IMG/VR virus record: IMGVR_UViG_3300046519_000180
Location: 1 to 47,457 of that record
Source: a virus
Strand: one strand, 5' to 3'
Length of the DNA: 47,457 bases
Position 1 is the first letter of the stretch; each line of letters begins with the position of its first letter. The position numbers and the translations under genes were made by a program. The notes under the pieces were generated by a model. The model worked only from the letters and a program-made list of their open reading frames with translations, was not told the origin of the DNA and ran no database searches. Of this stretch, positions 56 through 47,019 are shown in pieces.

Positions 56-105
56 TGGTCGGGACGGAGTGATTCGAACACTCGACCCCTAGCACCCCAT
101 GCAAG
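56..105 (-). other. attL-type site: 3' part of tRNA-Pro(GGG)
   Basis: Read on the minus strand this is the 3' part of a tRNA: anticodon arm with loop ATGGGGT (anticodon GGG), a variable region, T arm GAGTG-TTCGAAT-CACTC, acceptor strand CGTCCCG, discriminator A and CCA. The anticodon arm matches the layout of E. coli tRNA-Pro(GGG), including a T-T mismatch in the stem. Beyond about base 105 the sequence is no longer tRNA and there is no D arm or 5' acceptor strand (CGGGACG), so it is a fragment. A tRNA 3' end next to its own terminator and followed by phage genes is the classic outcome of phage integration. The exact core cannot be fixed without the other att site. Confidence 0.8.
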
Positions 106-251
106 CGGACTGGCCTACAGCCCGCATAAAATAAGGCTCTCCGGCTTGGCGTTCGCTGCAACGATGCCTAACCGCGTTTTACTGTAATTCACTATGTCAC
201 TCGGAAAGTCACTGTGGCTTTTTAGCCATGTCCCCGGCGTCCTGCCGACGT

Positions 252-10278: not shown

Positions 10279-12000
10279 TCATTTCCTGTACTGCTTACCG
10301 TCGGGGCCAATGAAGACGCTACCAGCCGGAAGCGCGTCGGCCTGGGCTTTTGACGTAATGGTTGGAATCGCAGGTGCGGCTTGGGAAACTGCCGCAGTCG
10401 ATCCGGATGGCTGGGAAGCGGCTGCCGGCGCGCCGATGCGATCGCGGGATGCAGCAAAGGTTGAACGAATGTCTGCAAGCGACTTGCGGAAAGCGTCTTC
10501 ACTCATCTTCGGCGAAAGCGCTCCGATGGAGTCTGAGAGCTTTTTGCCCTCAGCGTCTGATAAGGCTCCGGCGCCCTTGAGTAGAGCGACCTGCGGCAAG
10601 AAGCTTTGCGCTTTCAATGTATCGAGCCGAGCCTCGAAGTCTGCTGCCGCCGAACCGGGTCGCGTCGGCAGAATCGAGGAAAGTCCCACGGCAGATGCCA
10701 GTCCCGGATCTTCGTCAATGCGAGGGCCGGTCGGATTCTTCGGATCGACTTTTGTGCCAAGAAGGGAGTCAACCGATGAAAGCGCCTGATCTATAGTCGC
10801 GACCTGTCCTGCTTGGGTTCGCGTTCTGTCCTGGGCCGCTTGCTGCTGGGCCTGAGTGTTCTGAGCCAGCTGCTGCTGCTTTAGCTGTCCGTCAGCCTGG
10901 GTGTTTGCCAGTTGGGCCTGTGCCTGCTGAGTCTTCAATGAGTTGGCGCCGGTAGGGTCAACCAGCGTCTGGTAACGCTGCTTTTGCTCCGGAGTGGCGT
11001 TCGGCGCAGTTGCTGCAGTGAATGCATCCTCAAGGCGCTGGGCCTGCCGGGTTTGGGTGGCAGCTGCCTGACCAGTTCGCACGCTTTCGAGCGATTGTTG
11101 GGCACGGGCTGCATTCTGATCCAGACCTGCCTGCCTTTGCTGATCGAGTCCGGCCGCGGCCAGGTCAGAACGAGTCAGGCGTTGACTGCTATCGCGGACG
11201 ATCCCCAGTTGTGCGCCTTGATTGGCTCGGTAGTTAGCGAGGTCAGCACGGTCCTGAGCCTGATATGCACTGCGTAGGTCATTGGCGCGCTGGAATCGGG
11301 TCAGTGCCAGTTGAGAATCCCCTGCCTGACCCTGACTGAACGTCCCAACGCCATCACCCAGGTTTGCTGCTGAGCCCAGCGATGAAAGAGGAGCAGATGG
11401 GTCAGCACTTCGCCCGCCCGGAGATAGGTCGGCGAGCGATGTTGGCATCTGTGGGCCGTTGCCCAACGGCGCAACTGCTGCGGCACTGGACAGGTCTGCC
11501 GGCTGGTTGCTGAATTGCGGAACGCCGCCGGCGCCAACTCTGCCGACGATCGCATTGCCACCGGCGCCGACGCCTGTCGAACGGTAGGCCGAATCAAGCC
11601 CTATTGGCTGAGCGGTCTGTGTTGAGAGTGAGCTTGTACCTTGGGGCGCAGCATCAGCGAGGCTGGCCGGCTGCTGGGAGGTTTGCGCTGTGGCAGTGGC
11701 TGGCTGGCCGGGAACAACTGGCGCCAACGACGACAGGCTCTGCGGTGCAGCGACTTGCGCGGGAGCACCGAACTGGGCCGAGTTAATAAATCCGCTGGAC
11801 GCTTGAGCTGAAGGGGCGCCCTGCTGATCGGCGACGACCGGCGCTGCGGCGGCCAACCCGGCCACCTTTGGCAATTGGTCAGATGCCCGCGCAATCGGAC
11901 CTCCGGTCAATGATTGGACGCCTTTCGCCGCTTGGGCAGCGCGCTGTGCAGGCGTCAGATACGCCGTGGCCAGGTCTCCGATGAGATCGCCGACTGCCAT
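10279..12000 (-). CDS. Probable internal virion/ejection protein, Gln/Ala-rich
   Basis: 573 residues from ATG at 12000 (GGGAG eight bases upstream; a GTG at 12009 lies in frame). Low complexity: Ala, Gln and Ser dominate, with long helical Gln-rich blocks (about 230-400) like TQAQQQAAQDRTRTQ. The C-terminal third (ADFEARLDTLKAQSFLPQVALLKGAGALSDAEGKKL) is a conserved-looking helical domain found in phage DNA-transfer proteins. Stop overlaps the next ejection gene (ATGA). Confidence 0.65.
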   Translation of the reverse strand: MAVGDLIGDLATAYLTPAQRAAQAAKGVQSLTGGPIARASDQLPKVAGLAAAAPVVADQQGAPSAQASSGFINSAQFGAPAQVAAPQSLSSLAPVVPGQPATATAQTSQQPASLADAAPQGTSSLSTQTAQPIGLDSAYRSTGVGAGGNAIVGRVGAGGVPQFSNQPADLSSAAAVAPLGNGPQMPTSLADLSPGGRSADPSAPLSSLGSAANLGDGVGTFSQGQAGDSQLALTRFQRANDLRSAYQAQDRADLANYRANQGAQLGIVRDSSQRLTRSDLAAAGLDQQRQAGLDQNAARAQQSLESVRTGQAAATQTRQAQRLEDAFTAATAPNATPEQKQRYQTLVDPTGANSLKTQQAQAQLANTQADGQLKQQQLAQNTQAQQQAAQDRTRTQAGQVATIDQALSSVDSLLGTKVDPKNPTGPRIDEDPGLASAVGLSSILPTRPGSAAADFEARLDTLKAQSFLPQVALLKGAGALSDAEGKKLSDSIGALSPKMSEDAFRKSLADIRSTFAASRDRIGAPAAASQPSGSTAAVSQAAPAIPTITSKAQADALPAGSVFIGPDGKQYRK

Positions 12001-29551: not shown

Positions 29552-29827
29552 TTACCCTGATCCGGCGCCGCGCAGATGATCAGCCTGTTTGGCGGTGTTG
29601 TAGTCCAAGTCCGCCTCGCTAGCTGCGCGAGACACCCTAAGGTTAGCGCCTGTCTTTCCAGGCTGTCCGCCTAAAACATGCCAGCGCTGGCACCCATCCG
29701 CACCAGTCTCGCCTTCCGATCCCGCGCCACCCCATGGATTGAGGTGCGCGGGCTGCCGGTGTTCAATTGCCACCGAACTACCGGTTGGCAGTGTCCAGGC
29801 CTCCCGTATGGTCCGCCCTGGCTGCGG
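29552..29827 (-). other. Open but unassigned frame after a TGA
   Basis: After an in-frame TGA at 29828-29830 the minus strand is open for 91 codons (TIREAWTLPTGSSVAIEHRQ, then AHLNPWGGAGSEGETG, ending ADHLRGAGSG). There is no ATG or good RBS; the first usable start is GTG at 29773. Its frame continues that of the repeat upstream (EPAPRNVINANRGAQHS-stop). It could be a broken gene, a recoded extension or a non-coding relic; nothing else is visible here. Confidence 0.4.
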
Positions 29828-39480: not shown

Positions 39481-40347
39481 ATGACTGAATCGTTGGGTGA
39501 GCGCATCAAGCGCCTAAGAAAAGAGAGAGGGCTGTCGCAGGCTGCGTTGGCAGAGGCTTGCGGCTGGAAATCACAATCCCGCGTCGGAAACTACGAGGTT
39601 GGCACCAGAGAACCAACATTCGCCGATCTGCAGACAATGGCTCGGGCGTTAGGGGTTAGGCCGACGGAACTGGTGCCTTTCGTATTGGTGGATGAGGTGC
39701 ATCGTTCAGAGTATGTCGATCCACTTCCATCACCGGCTAAAGCTGTACCACCAATAGGGTTTACCGCAACTCCGATGACGGCCGGCGATTTTGTCCGAGA
39801 CATGCTCGGAAAGGCTGCAAAGCTGCCCGATGATCTCAGGGGAAAAATTCTTGCTGCTGCGGAACACGCCGACAACGCACAGAACGTTGTGACCGGTGAC
39901 TTCTCAAGGCCAGGCTTAGTCGGTGATGAGGTGTGGATTGCGCATTACGACGTGCGCGGTGCGATGGGCGGAGGTCAGTCAATTCAAGACTTCCCGGAAA
40001 TGCTGAAAGACATACGCGTGAGCCCGAGTCACTTGCGCGAGATGGGTGTGGAGTTTGAGGAGTACTACCATCTGAAACTTGTCACGGGTTGGGGCCAGTC
40101 GATGGAGCCGACGATCAGGCATCGCGACCCTCTTATCGTGAACGCTCACATCCGAGAATTCGCTGGCGATGGCATATACGTATTTTTCTGGGATGACCAC
40201 GTCTATATCAAGCGATTGCAGGTTGCCGATGAGGATCACTTTGAGATGATCTCCGACAACCCCAAGCACAAAGATCGACTGATCCGCAGAGATATGACGT
40301 ACATACAGGCTCGGGTCCTGCTTGTTTGGAATGCCCACCTCGTGTGA
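39481..40347 (+). CDS. Phage repressor, HTH plus S24 peptidase (CI/LexA-type)
   Basis: 288 residues. HTH (about 5-60: LGERIKRLRKERGLSQAALAEACGW, TREPTFADLQTMARALG), linker, S24 domain with the Ser of TGWGQSMEPTI and the Lys of VYIKRLQ. Such repressors hold the prophage silent and self-cleave with RecA after damage. A candidate cleavage area is GAMGGG near residue 160. Start has no strong RBS, possibly leaderless. Followed by a bidirectional terminator. Confidence 0.9.
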   Translation: MTESLGERIKRLRKERGLSQAALAEACGWKSQSRVGNYEVGTREPTFADLQTMARALGVRPTELVPFVLVDEVHRSEYVDPLPSPAKAVPPIGFTATPMTAGDFVRDMLGKAAKLPDDLRGKILAAAEHADNAQNVVTGDFSRPGLVGDEVWIAHYDVRGAMGGGQSIQDFPEMLKDIRVSPSHLREMGVEFEEYYHLKLVTGWGQSMEPTIRHRDPLIVNAHIREFAGDGIYVFFWDDHVYIKRLQVADEDHFEMISDNPKHKDRLIRRDMTYIQARVLLVWNAHLV

Positions 40348-41445: not shown

Positions 41446-42207
41446 ATGGAACAAACCCTTCAGCAACTGCTGGCTGAACGCGTTACCGCATTTGCGAACA
41501 GCGAAAAGCCAGTCGAAATCATCGACGAGCACGTTAAGAAGATGTTCACCAGCGTGATAGACAGCTGCTTCGGTCGATATGGCGAAATGGGCAAGCACGT
41601 GGAAGAGGCTATCAAGACGGCGCTTCCCGCCAACCTGACCGAAATCTTCGAACTGACTCGTTACAACACCATGATCGCCGCAGCGCTCAAAGAGAAGTGG
41701 GAAAACAGTGGCGTCGAGGCCGACATGGTGCGCCATGCGCAAAAGCAGATTGAAGAGGTGCTGAACAAAGACGCGCTGCCCGCAGTGATCAGTTTGCAGG
41801 ATCTGATGGAAGCTTTCGTAGAGGATCACAAAGAGTCGGCTGCCGAAGAGCACTGGGAACATCCAGATATTCGGTTCCAGCCTTCCGACTACGGCGGCTT
41901 GCACATCTACTTCGATAAGAAGCCAAAGGATCATGGCATTTCGAGCTACTCAAGGAGCTCGGAGCGTAGCGAGTACGATCTCGACAATGCGATCCACATC
42001 AGCTTCGACCGCCATGGCAAAGATCGGGATGAGAAAGGCCGCGAAGTTGGCACCGTTTACTCGGCAAAGATCGACAACGAGAAGATCAGCCAGACGCTGA
42101 AGTTTCGCACCTCGTTCGAAAAGATGGTCGCCGCACTGTACTTCGGCTCTTCGAAGATCGTCGTTGACTGCGATGAAGACGATTTCAGCTACGGAATTTA
42201 TGACTGA
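41446..42207 (+). CDS. Conserved-looking phage protein of unknown function
   Basis: 253 residues, ATG with GGAG eight bases upstream. N-terminal helical bundle (about 1-110), acidic helix around HKESAAEEHWEHPD, and a C-terminal mixed domain (PSDYGGLHIYFDKKP, HISFDRHGKDRDEKG, KIVVDCDEDDFSYGIYD). No motif assigned. Precedes the large gene-free region. Confidence 0.6.
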   Translation: MEQTLQQLLAERVTAFANSEKPVEIIDEHVKKMFTSVIDSCFGRYGEMGKHVEEAIKTALPANLTEIFELTRYNTMIAAALKEKWENSGVEADMVRHAQKQIEEVLNKDALPAVISLQDLMEAFVEDHKESAAEEHWEHPDIRFQPSDYGGLHIYFDKKPKDHGISSYSRSSERSEYDLDNAIHISFDRHGKDRDEKGREVGTVYSAKIDNEKISQTLKFRTSFEKMVAALYFGSSKIVVDCDEDDFSYGIYD

Positions 42208-42872
42208 ACCATCCTCCTGCGCATTCACAGAGTGCGCAGCGGGATGCGGACGAAACTGCGGCCTATAACCGCCCACCTGCATCAATGCGCAGAGCCGATC
42301 TGCGAAGCCAGTGTTCTAGCGCTGGCCGGTATCTCCGAACCTAGCCTTGCCGGGTATCGGTAGCAAGGAATGGCATCCCTGTTGGTAGCAGGGCCTTCGA
42401 ACCACCTGCTTGCGGTGGGCCAAAGAGCAAGCCCGATCACTTGGCGGTCTCACCCGCCAGGCTGTATCGGAGGTGGCCTTCAGTCCCGCAAGGGTCTAAG
42501 GGCGTCGAGCTGTAAGGTCATGCCACGCGGTCCTTAGGGGCGACACATGCGGCGTGGTTCCTGATCGGGCGGTATGAACCCTGCCCGACGGAAAGGCGGA
42601 CCTGGCCACAGCACTGAAGACCACCCCCGATGCAGATGAAGCAACAAGCGCAGGCTGATGCGTGGGTTTGAAAACTAACAGTTCCCGAGAGTGATCGCTG
42701 ACCGGCTAAGTACTATTTTATGCCCGCGCGGTACCGGCTCGTAATAACTGGCATTGCGGTAGGCGAAAGCCGCTGACCGCGGCATGACTCTCAACCCGGA
42801 GATCAGCACCGGGCTCTGCATCATCTATGCTGTCGATTCGCTAAATTCCAGCGGATAGACTTGAGGACGCTT
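42208..42872 (+). ncRNA. Candidate large structured RNA, gene-free region
   Basis: No supported ORF in about 665 bases. Many stems: CTGCGCA/TGCGCAG (42217-42239), GCGG/CCGC inside GATGC/GCATC (42243-42283), CCTTGC/GCAAGG (42345-42368), CCACC/GGTGG (42402-42418), TGGCGG/CCGCCA (42442-42459) within CCGAT/ATCGG, TCGGGC/GCCCGA (42565-42588), a GAAA tetraloop (42762-42771) in GCGGT/ACCGC, and CCCGG/CCGGG (42795-42813). CTAAGG/CCTTAG (42496-42537) interlocks with CCACGC/GCGTGG (42523-42557), a possible pseudoknot. Class (GOLLD/ROOL-like by size) not determined; boundaries are the flanking genes. Confidence 0.5.
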
Positions 42873-43153: not shown

Positions 43154-43178
43154 AACCCGGTTAATTCCGGGTTTTTAT
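43154..43178 (+). terminator. Strong terminator in the rightward operon
   Basis: ACCCGG-TTAATT-CCGGGT followed by TTTTATT. It stands between the putative RNA/80-aa gene and the downstream operon, so downstream genes need read-through (boxA) or another promoter. Confidence 0.85.
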
Positions 43179-43254
43179 TGCCCGAAATTCAGAGATCAAC
43201 CCCGTTCAACAGGTAGCCACTGCCTTCCCAGTGAGCGAGTAATAGGAGATTGCG

Positions 43255-43401
43255 ATGAGCAAAAAGCAAATTGCTGTGAACACTGCGCGGTACCACAGCC
43301 GTATGGCGGTACGGGCAGTCCGGATATTTCACTGCCCAGCCCAAGCTGTGGCATCCCGCGCTCGTCGTGACGAATTTATGCAAATGGCTCGTTCCGCGTA
43401 A
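43255..43401 (+). CDS. Small basic protein (48 aa)
   Basis: ATG with TAGGAGATTGCG before it. Starts MSKKQIAVNTARYHSRMAVR, strongly basic throughout (ARRDEF near the end). Likely nucleic-acid binding; family not recognised. Confidence 0.65.
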   Translation: MSKKQIAVNTARYHSRMAVRAVRIFHCPAQAVASRARRDEFMQMARSA

Positions 43402-43517
43402 CACCCCTCCCACACCCTCCCGAACACACCCACATGCAACCCCTCCGCTGCCACTTGGCCGTTCGCGTTCTTGTGGTTGCAGCTGAGTGTGTTTGGTTAA
43501 TCAGCAAGGAGATCGTC

Positions 43518-43796
43518 ATGCATGACTGCACGGATACCCAGGCGGTCTGCCGGGGTTGCGGCTTGAAGCTGCGTGGCTCGCCATCCTGGAAAGGCGGGCT
43601 GGCATATCACCCCGAGCCGAAAGGTGAAGTCCACCGGTGCCACTACGGCGGCTGGGCTTGCTCACGACGCTGCGATATCCGCGCCTGCGTCGAGCTGGAA
43701 GGAACCATGCCCGGGTGCGGATCGGTGAACGACTATTCGCGCCTGTCTCCATATGCCAAAGAAAGCATCAATCGCCACTGGTCGGAGGCGGCATGA
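43518..43796 (+). CDS. Zinc-binding small phage protein
   Basis: 92 residues from ATG at 43518 (AAGGAG upstream). Cys/His pattern: CRGCGLKL, HRCHYGGWACSRRCDIRAC, probably a zinc ribbon-like fold. This type is frequent in pseudomonad phages. Overlaps the next gene by 4 bases. Confidence 0.7.
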   Translation: MHDCTDTQAVCRGCGLKLRGSPSWKGGLAYHPEPKGEVHRCHYGGWACSRRCDIRACVELEGTMPGCGSVNDYSRLSPYAKESINRHWSEAA

Positions 43797-46074: not shown

Positions 46075-47019
46075 ATGAATCAGGCAGTCACCACTATCAC
46101 GCAGGACATTTACGCGCAGCGGAATCAGTTCGCGAATGTCCTGACCGACCGGTCGCTCAACTTCGAGCGCGAGGCCGAGTTCGCCATCCAGGTGATCACA
46201 GCCAACGAGTACGCCACCAAGATAGCCTTGCAGAACCGCCAGTCGGTGGCCAACGCCATCACGAACATCGCCGCCATCGGCATCAGCCTGAATCCGGCGA
46301 AGAAGCAGGCCTATCTAGTCCCTCGCGACGGGAAGATCTGCCTCGACATCAGCTACATCGGCCTGATGGATCTGGCCATGTCGACCGGCGCCATCCGCTG
46401 GGCCCAGGCTGAACTGGTCTACGCAGCGGACTCCTTCTCTCTCAACGGCTTTGACAAGCCGCCATCCCACTCCTACAACCCGTTCGCCAAGGATCGCGGT
46501 GAGCCGATTGGTGTGTACGTGGTGGTCAAGACAGCCGACGGCGACTACCTCACCGAGACGATGAGCATCGACGACGTGAACGCCATCCGTGATCGGTCAA
46601 GCGCCTGGAAGGCCTGGATTGGCAAGCAGAAGAGCTGCCCGTGGGTAACCGACCCTGGCGAGATGGCCAAGAAGACGGTGGTCAAGCGCGGCTACAAATA
46701 TTGGCCGAAGACGGACCGCCTTGAACAGGCCATCCACCACCTGAACACAGACGGCGGCGAGGGGCTGGCCGGGATGCTGGGTTCGGCGCCAAGCGATCCC
46801 GAGTTGGTAAACAACTGGATCGACCTGGCAATGAAGGCTGGCAGCCTCGAATCACTGGCCGACGTGTACCACCAGGGCACGGCAGCTATGAAGCAAGCCA
46901 AAGACGCTGCTGGCCATGCCCGCTTCAAGGCGGAAGTGACCAAGCGCAGCGAAACCCTTAAAGCAGAAGCCGCGCCCATCGAAGGCGAGGCTGAGGAGGT
47001 GTTAGATGGAGCAGCGTAG
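46075..47019 (+). CDS. recT: RecT-family single-strand annealing protein
   Basis: 314 residues. Core: AITNIAAIGISLNPAKKQAYLVPRDGKI, LDISYIGLMDLAMSTGAI, VVKTADGDYLTETMSIDDV and KSCPWVTDPGEMAKKTVVKR. C-terminal 80 residues acidic and flexible. Catalyses strand annealing with the adjacent exonuclease, in the lambda Red/RecET manner. Stop overlaps the exonuclease start. Confidence 0.95.
   Translation: MNQAVTTITQDIYAQRNQFANVLTDRSLNFEREAEFAIQVITANEYATKIALQNRQSVANAITNIAAIGISLNPAKKQAYLVPRDGKICLDISYIGLMDLAMSTGAIRWAQAELVYAADSFSLNGFDKPPSHSYNPFAKDRGEPIGVYVVVKTADGDYLTETMSIDDVNAIRDRSSAWKAWIGKQKSCPWVTDPGEMAKKTVVKRGYKYWPKTDRLEQAIHHLNTDGGEGLAGMLGSAPSDPELVNNWIDLAMKAGSLESLADVYHQGTAAMKQAKDAAGHARFKAEVTKRSETLKAEAAPIEGEAEEVLDGAA

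What the first reader, a model, noticed from the sequence alone, without database searches (positions are those of the whole stretch)
42208..42872. Candidate large ornate ncRNA in the early rightward operon
665 bases without a supported ORF in an otherwise packed genome, with at least ten stable stems, a GAAA-capped hairpin, nested multiloops and a plausible pseudoknot (42496-42557). Size and phage location recall GOLLD/ROOL-type RNAs, but none of those families is identified. It could bind capsids, act in replication or regulate the operon.
Basis: partly seen in the sequence, partly recalled or inferred. Interest (0 to 1): 0.85.

Follow-up and report, generated by a model that had tools for sequence, protein, structure and literature searches.

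The report
Phage tRNA-framed RNAs with exchangeable cores
The gap is a chain of small folded RNAs, not one big RNA; its best-supported member has the outer shape of a transfer RNA with the decoding arm replaced by an exchangeable core, a design shared by RNAs in many phages, including coliphage P1, that no database or paper we could search describes.

Summary
The gap is truly non-coding and structured, but it is not one 665-nt RNA. It is a chain of separately exchangeable units: A 42210-42246, B 42243-42283, C/D 42285-42431, linker hairpin 42433-42470, E 42472-42625, F 42629-42822. Covariation is strong for F (13 pairs with two-sided changes in 17 sequences; 0/500 shuffles) and E (12 pairs in 5 sequences; 0/500). 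Rfam has no match.

F is tRNA-like: a closing stem, a D-arm-like and a T-arm-like hairpin with complementary loops; a pseudoknotted core replaces the anticodon arm. The same frame holds 46 unrelated core clusters in other phages, including P1 (547 of 5426 complete E. coli genomes carry that copy). In low-GC phages the F core sits, in the same register, inside a real tRNA acceptor/D/T frame, which itself holds 88 core clusters without anticodon arm. T4 stable RNA C is a possible relative.

Most likely: trans-acting phage RNAs, the frame serving maturation and stability, the swappable core acting on host factors in takeover or counter-defence. The class is well supported; expression here and function are inferred.

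The parts
42210..42246 (+). Unit A: hairpin CATCC..GGATG, directly after the stop codon of the upstream gene
   Evidence: Folds at -24.3 kcal/mol; 94-98% identical copies directly after unrelated gene ends in MR13/MR15, L016, L021, L023, L040 and L047
42243..42283 (+). Unit B: small closed unit GATGCGG..CCTGCATC with one inner hairpin
   Evidence: 95-100% identical in L004, L005 and L030; other phages keep the closing stem with a different inner hairpin (L016, L023, L031)
42285..42431 (+). Units C/D: stems including CCAGTG/CGCTGG, CCTTGC/GCAAGG and CCCTG/CAGGG; boundaries uncertain
   Evidence: About 88% identical in L023 and L044; only three contigs in IMG/VR carry its core 17-mer; too few homologues for a covariation test
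42433..42470 (+). Linker hairpin CCGAT..ATCGG
   Evidence: Folds at -21.4 kcal/mol; the same hairpin with other inner sequence precedes units in L016, L022, L031, L040 and L047
42472..42625 (+). Unit E: 154-nt structured RNA closed by GGTGGCCTTCAG/CTGAAGACCACC
   Evidence: 5-sequence alignment A3: 12 of 31 pairs with two-sided changes, 95.4% of cells paired, 0/500 shuffles
42629..42822 (+). Unit F: 194-nt tRNA-like-framed RNA with pseudoknotted core
   Evidence: 17-sequence alignment A2: 13 of 43 pairs with two-sided changes, 98.5% of cells paired, 0/500 shuffles; model R1 scores the window copy 208.6 bits
42629..42636 (+). F: 5' strand of closing (acceptor-like) stem P1, GATGCAGA; pairs with 42815-42822
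   Evidence: Unrelated but complementary stems in other copies, e.g. GTGTGATC/GATCACAC and GATTGG/CCAATC; control
42648..42663 (+). F: D-arm-like hairpin P2, loop GGCTGA
   Evidence: Stem pairs covary (helix 1; fifth pair AU to GC)
42654..42658 (+). F: loop strand GCTGA, complementary to TCAGC at 42803-42807 (kissing of the D-like and T-like loops)
   Evidence: Core invariant; outer pair G-C, G-U or A-U; no alternative complementary loop pair found
42679..42683 (+). F: P3 5' strand CAGTT, pairs with AACTG at 42746-42750; crosses P4 (pseudoknot)
   Evidence: Invariant complementarity, also in the tRNA-framed copy L017; no covariation possible
42687..42692 (+). F: P4 5' strand GAGAGT, pairs with ACTCTC at 42787-42792
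   Evidence: 4 of 6 pairs with two-sided changes; GCAAGC/GCTTGC, GCGAAC/GTTCGC and GGATTA/TAATCC in homologues
42702..42737 (+). F: P5 CCGG (42702-42705)/CCGG (42734-42737), CCAG/CTGG in homologues
42756..42780 (+). F: P7 hairpin with the GAAA loop
   Evidence: Covaries (helices 7 and 8)
42795..42813 (+). F: T-arm-like hairpin P8, CCCGG-AGATCAGCA-CCGGG
   Evidence: 3 of 5 stem pairs covary (helix 9)
42815..42822 (+). F: 3' strand of P1, TCTGCATC

Best explanation
The gap encodes a chain of small RNAs, co-directional with the operon, that act in trans. Unit F belongs to a broad class of phage RNAs in which a tRNA-like frame (closing stem, D-like hairpin, T-like hairpin joined by loop-loop pairing) holds an exchangeable, often pseudoknotted core in place of the anticodon arm. 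SHOWN: the fold and frame of F; covariation of F and E; many unrelated cores in one frame; the F core in a true tRNA frame in the same register; frequent neighbourhood to phage tRNA genes. INFERRED: (1) the units are transcribed with the operon and cut into separate stable RNAs, with the tRNA-like frame recognised by host tRNA-end-processing enzymes and protecting the ends; (2) the core is the active part and binds a host protein or ribonucleoprotein, most likely as a decoy or inhibitor in host takeover or counter-defence; (3) units are swapped between phages by recombination in their shared stems.
For: Covariation in F and E, with slid controls far lower. The model of F, built without the low-GC phage copy, finds that copy full length at E = 3e-17; there the core lies between a tRNA D stem and T stem, in the same register as in the kissing frame. 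Frame survey: 87 distinct inserts in 46 clusters in the kissing frame, 102 in 88 clusters in the tRNA frame. 97 of 102 tRNA-frame elements keep the acceptor pairing, but only 3 have an anticodon-type arm (2.4 expected by chance). Closing stems match their own partner in 84 of 108 cases against 12% for mismatched partners. Kissing frames lie near tRNA genes more often than random points (14/115 against 25/535), same strand in 13 of 14; 53 of 95 tRNA-frame loci also hold ordinary tRNA genes. The same units follow unrelated genes, arguing for action in trans. A possible relative, T4 RNA C, is a known stable phage RNA seen by Northern blot (PMC9697503).
Against: No expression data for this phage. 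No partner, target or phenotype is known for any unit. Processing by RNase P/Z is an analogy: no CCA or processing site was tested. Hypervariable cores fit an arms race but also relaxed constraint, except for the F core, which is conserved. Kissing rests on complementary invariant loops with only two compensatory cases. C/D, A and B lack a covariation test.
Confidence: 0.5

Rival explanations
1. The frame itself is the active part: the RNAs are anticodon-less tRNA decoys that titrate host nucleases, toxins or modifying enzymes that attack or recognise tRNAs, and the core only blocks use in translation or changes specificity.
For: A true tRNA frame (acceptor, D arm, T arm) kept almost unchanged over 102 elements while the cores differ; neighbourhood to phage tRNA genes; phage tRNAs have been proposed to counter tRNA-targeting defences (PMC10264068, abstract seen).
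Against: The F core is conserved in sequence and structure between Pseudomonas, Proteus and low-GC phages, so the core is under its own selection. Many defence nucleases cut the anticodon loop, which is missing here (own knowledge).
Confidence: 0.2
2. Cis-acting RNA: the chain controls transcription or processing of the early operon (antitermination of the put type, attenuation, or RNase processing spacers).
For: The chain lies inside a co-directional operon between the repressor and recombination genes; unit A begins at the upstream stop codon.
Against: The same units follow unrelated genes and lie in tRNA clusters; no terminator-like site was found between 42208 and 42872; unit number and kind vary widely at one place.
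Confidence: 0.15
3. DNA-level element: the closing stems and hairpins are ends of mobile or recombining DNA units (IS200/IS605-like ends, attC-like sites or recombination linkers).
For: Units are exchanged and share short boundary sequences such as GATGCGG and GTGATCTG.
Against: Internal helices covary as RNA helices do, far from the boundaries. In the low-GC phages the F core carries tRNA arms instead of the hairpin 'ends'.
Confidence: 0.07
4. One large ornate RNA of GOLLD/ROOL type, as first proposed.
For: Size of the gap and low folding energy; GOLLD and ROOL also lie in phages, often near tRNA islands (PMC12286853).
Against: No Rfam match; separable units; proposed pseudoknot not conserved.
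Confidence: 0.03

Closest known systems
tRNA (Rfam RF00005)
   Same: Closing stem, D-arm and T-arm positions, D-loop/T-loop contact; in the low-GC phages true tRNA acceptor, D and T sequences
   Different: No anticodon arm; a 23-163 nt core in its place. Unit F is not called by ARAGORN or by Rfam at the gathering score
Phage T4 stable RNA C (rnaC, species 1 RNA)
   Same: 139-nt stable phage RNA of unknown function at the end of a tRNA cluster; canonical T arm CCGGG-TTCGAAT-CCCGG next to a 7-bp acceptor-like stem; seen by RNA-seq and Northern blot (PMC9697503)
   Different: Acceptor-like stem has two U.U mismatches; no D-like hairpin recognised; core unrelated in sequence; rnaD shows no T arm
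GOLLD and ROOL RNAs
   Same: Phage-borne, pseudoknotted, often near tRNA islands, function unknown (PMC12286853)
   Different: Single RNAs of about 660 to over 800 nt; no Rfam match here; the units here are about 40-194 nt and exchangeable
tmRNA
   Same: A tRNA-like domain combined with pseudoknots
   Different: No Rfam match in the window; D-like hairpin present; no tag frame looked for or seen
Y RNA-like YrlA
   Same: A tRNA-mimicking part fused to another RNA part (own knowledge)
   Different: No Rfam match in the window
Type III antitoxin RNAs (ToxI)
   Same: H-type pseudoknots with a proposed role against host toxins (own knowledge; analogy only)
   Different: Not a tandem array of one short repeat; no toxin gene recognised among the neighbours annotated

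Membership tests
tRNA-framed exchangeable-core RNA (class proposed here) | Closing stem with independent but complementary sequence | tested here: met
   GATGCAGA/TCTGCATC in the window; 84 of 108 own partners against 12% of mismatched ones
tRNA-framed exchangeable-core RNA (class proposed here) | D-like and T-like hairpins with complementary loops | tested here: met
   P2, P8 and loop pairing; stems covary
tRNA-framed exchangeable-core RNA (class proposed here) | Core interchangeable between kissing frame and true tRNA frame | tested here: met
   F core in the L017 group, same register, up to 83% identity. Shown for the F core only
tRNA-framed exchangeable-core RNA (class proposed here) | Expressed as a separate stable RNA | not testable with these tools
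   No transcriptome of this phage
tRNA | Anticodon arm and recognition by tRNA finders | tested here: not met
   ARAGORN and Rfam find no tRNA at 42629-42822; no anticodon arm; in the tRNA-framed set 3 of 102 against 2.4 by chance
GOLLD / ROOL | Match to the Rfam model | tested here: not met
GOLLD / ROOL | Single large RNA | tested here: not met
   Separable units
tmRNA | Match to the Rfam model | tested here: not met
YrlA / Y RNA | Match to an Rfam model; Ro60 homologue nearby | tested here: inconclusive
   No Rfam match; a Ro60 homologue was not specifically searched for
T4 RNA C type | Acceptor plus canonical T arm around a long core, no D arm | tested here: inconclusive
   T4 rnaC has a T arm and 5 of 7 acceptor pairs; unit F has an acceptor-like stem and a non-canonical T-like hairpin
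Type III toxin-antitoxin | Tandem antitoxin repeats next to a toxin gene | tested here: inconclusive
   No repeat array is evident in the sequence, and no toxin family appeared among the 10 neighbouring proteins scanned with PHROGs and 4 with Pfam; not searched further

The most novel reading that the evidence does not exclude
Phages of several bacterial groups use a tRNA-shaped frame as a general display scaffold: one processed, nuclease-resistant outer frame into which unrelated folded RNA cores are swapped, each core antagonising a particular host factor or defence. The P1 RNA, unit F of this phage and possibly T4 RNA C would be members.
Probability: 0.45. Interest if true: 0.95.

Novelty: categorically new. 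Interest (0 to 1): 0.88.

Why it matters
It points to a large, apparently undescribed kind of phage RNA: a constant tRNA-like shell with a variable core, comparable in layout to a scaffold with interchangeable heads. It occurs in model phages such as P1, and the P1 copy sits in 547 of 5426 complete E. coli genomes, so its function can be tested in K-12 laboratory strains. It may also give a lead on the function of the T4 stable RNAs, which PMC9697503 still lists as unknown. Annotation tools miss such RNAs or call them odd tRNAs with impossible anticodons, so phage tRNA counts may be partly wrong.

Tried and rejected
Rfam at permissive threshold gave only chance-level matches. BLAST of the gap or parts in plasmids, E. 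coli genomes and (unit E) phages found nothing. The class-wide search of 369 gammaproteobacterial genomes found F only in the P. abietaniphila genome used as centre, so it is rare and phage-borne. A self-cleaving ribozyme was considered because unit B holds GGACGAAAC, but the core motif of a hammerhead is incomplete; rejected by eye. The single-sequence fold was rejected as a guide because it crosses unit borders. A search for alternative complementary loop pairs in the frame gave none, so the loop contact is supported by invariance and two compensatory cases, not by broad covariation. T4 rnaD shows no T arm. Full-text searches found no description of this class; the library lacks most subscription papers, so earlier description cannot be excluded. 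An H-type pseudoknot as common layout of the tRNA-frame cores has modest support only: terminal helix scoring 6 or more in 30% against 11% of shuffled cores. P6 (ATGCC/GGCAT) and a local UGCC/GGUA hairpin are both invariant and cannot be told apart.

Full report
WHAT IS THERE. The stretch 42208-42872 has no ORF of 60 aa or more lying wholly inside it, and the longest open stretch in six frames is 69 codons. The + strand folds better than dinucleotide shuffles (z = -3.2). Rfam 15 gives no match at the gathering score and only chance-level matches below it. It lies on the + strand between a CI-like repressor gene (39481-40347) with a phrog_2600 gene (41446-42207) and a RecT-like gene (46075-47019). 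The window is a virus record. So the basic observation, a structured non-coding gap in an operon, holds.

NOT ONE RNA BUT A CHAIN. BLAST against phages and fetched loci shows that the gap is modular. Hairpin A (42210-42246) lies directly after unrelated gene ends in MR13/MR15, L016, L021, L023, L040 and L047. In L001 and L021 it is joined directly to unit F. Unit B, units C/D, a CCGAT..ATCGG linker hairpin and unit E each occur with or without the others; other phages hold yet other units at the same place. Units are bounded by stems of a few recurrent sequences (GATGCRG..CTGCATC; GTGATCTG..CAGATCAC), which would let homologous recombination exchange them (inference).

UNIT E. Five diverged copies (A3) give 12 of 31 pairs with two-sided changes, 95.4% of cells paired, covariation 0.394 against 0.163 in shuffles (0/500) and at most 0.10 in slid versions. 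The closing stem changes from GGTGGCCTTCAG/CTGAAGACCACC to GTGTACCGCC/GGCGGTACAC.

UNIT F. Seventeen copies (A2) give 43 named pairs with 98.5% of cells paired, 13 pairs with two-sided changes, and a covariation score of 0.274 against 0.107 +/- 0.010 in shuffles (0/500) and at most 0.051 in slid versions. Helices: D-like hairpin P2, T-like hairpin P8, P4, P5 and P7 all covary; P3 and P6 are invariant or nearly so. P3 crosses P4, so the core is pseudoknotted if P3 forms. P6 cannot be told from a local hairpin (UUCG-capped in L002). The closing stem P1 has a different but complementary sequence in each phage group. P1, the D-like and the T-like hairpin stand as in a tRNA: the T-like hairpin abuts the 3' strand of P1, a linker follows the 5' strand, and the two loops carry GCTGA and TCAGC. 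The outer loop pair is G-C, G-U or, in two elements with different cores (L032 and L235), A-U; the inner pairs are invariant, which fits pairing but also fits protein recognition.

THE FRAME HOLDS MANY CORES. The model of F found in Pseudomonas genomes not only four full copies but also about a dozen hits that share only the frame. Own closing-stem partners match in 84 of 108 cases, mismatched partners in 12%. Elements lie near tRNA genes more often than random points (14/115 against 25/535), in the same strand in 13 of 14. The 15-mer used for the scan fixes the T-like loop, and the filter fixes CTGA and CAG, so the invariance of these letters is partly by selection.

TRUE tRNA FRAME. In 373-kb and related low-GC phage contigs (L017 group) the F core lies between a D stem and a T stem of tRNA type, with acceptor AGTCAGG/CCTGACT. 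The model built without it scores it at E = 3e-17 over its full length; the core starts at the same distance from the D stem in both frames, and P4 is GGATTA/TAATCC there. Among 102 distinct cores, in 88 clusters, 97 elements keep the acceptor pairing, 3 have an anticodon-type arm (2.4 by chance), and ARAGORN calls only 15, some with impossible anticodons. In 53 of the 95 loci ordinary tRNA genes lie nearby (a few of those calls may be framed elements themselves). The hosts of these phages were not determined. No core other than F was convincingly shared between the two frames.

MODEL PHAGES. The kissing frame occurs in phage P1 (record NC_005856, about 69815-69920, + strand, antisense to the unknown ORFs plp and upl, about 300 nt after tRNA-Thr) and in mEp460. 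The P1 element is in 547 of 5426 complete E. coli genomes, nearly always on plasmid records, as expected of P1-like phage-plasmids. T4 rnaC has a canonical T arm beside an acceptor-like stem with 5 of 7 pairs; it is a stable RNA of unknown function confirmed by Northern blot (PMC9697503). I count it as a possible relative only.

HOW IT MAY WORK. Shown: fold, covariation, modular exchange, two interchangeable frames for the F core, tRNA-gene neighbourhood. Inferred: transcription with the operon, release and end protection through the tRNA-like frame, and action of the core in trans on a host factor. The diversity of cores, their exchange between phages and their place among accessory early genes and tRNA clusters fit host takeover or counter-defence. 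The conserved F core points to a conserved partner. The main rivals are a pure tRNA decoy and a cis-acting operon element; a DNA-level element is unlikely because internal helices covary and the hairpin 'ends' are replaced by tRNA arms in the low-GC phages.

COMPARISON. tRNA, tmRNA, GOLLD and ROOL fail at least one tested defining feature. The full-text library, which lacks most subscription papers, has no description of the class. On that basis I rate the class as categorically new, with the caveat about unsearched literature; the tRNA mimicry by itself is a known principle.

LIMITS. No transcript or phenotype data. F alignment rows are mostly from related phages; the slid control and the distant copies (L002, L017) argue against a pure relatedness effect. 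Units A, B and C/D have no covariation test.

Noticed in passing
window 29751-29827 (-): Rfam Proteo-phage-1 RNA (54.7 bits) in another part of the phage; the same family lies in L022 at 11511-11589.
   Followed up: no
window 56-124 (-): ARAGORN calls a tRNA-Pro (ggg) at the very start of the record; its length of 69 nt and place suggest a phage tRNA remnant or an attachment site.
   Followed up: no
window 43199-43257 and 43407-43520: Two further short non-coding stretches conserved at 84-97% in other phages with the chain (L023, L031, L040, L047); a terminator-like hairpin lies at 43154-43173.
   Followed up: no
NC_005856 (L363) about 69063-70340: The P1 tRNA region holds several further stem-closed units on the + strand, one (69502) with a T-arm-like hairpin AGGG-TTCGAAT-CCCT, opposite the doubtful ORFs plp and upl.
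   Followed up: partly
L017 5600-7740 (-): The low-GC large phage carries about five tRNA-like elements in a row with near-identical acceptor, D and T parts and different inner parts.
   Followed up: partly
L016 and L040: A further unit with conserved loop ATCAAATGTCGTTA and changing stems (CCTG/CAGG, CCGG/CCGG).
   Followed up: no
L002 2561-2713: Annotated ORF BROOKERS_41 overlaps the F copy of Proteus phage Brookers and is most likely spurious.
   Followed up: partly
L246 5468-5866 (-): A phage-borne tmRNA (63.1 bits) in a contig that also has a tRNA-framed element.
   Followed up: no
L320, L347: ARAGORN reports framed elements as 'tRNA-???' with a four-base anticodon: a likely source of false phage tRNA annotations.
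   Followed up: partly
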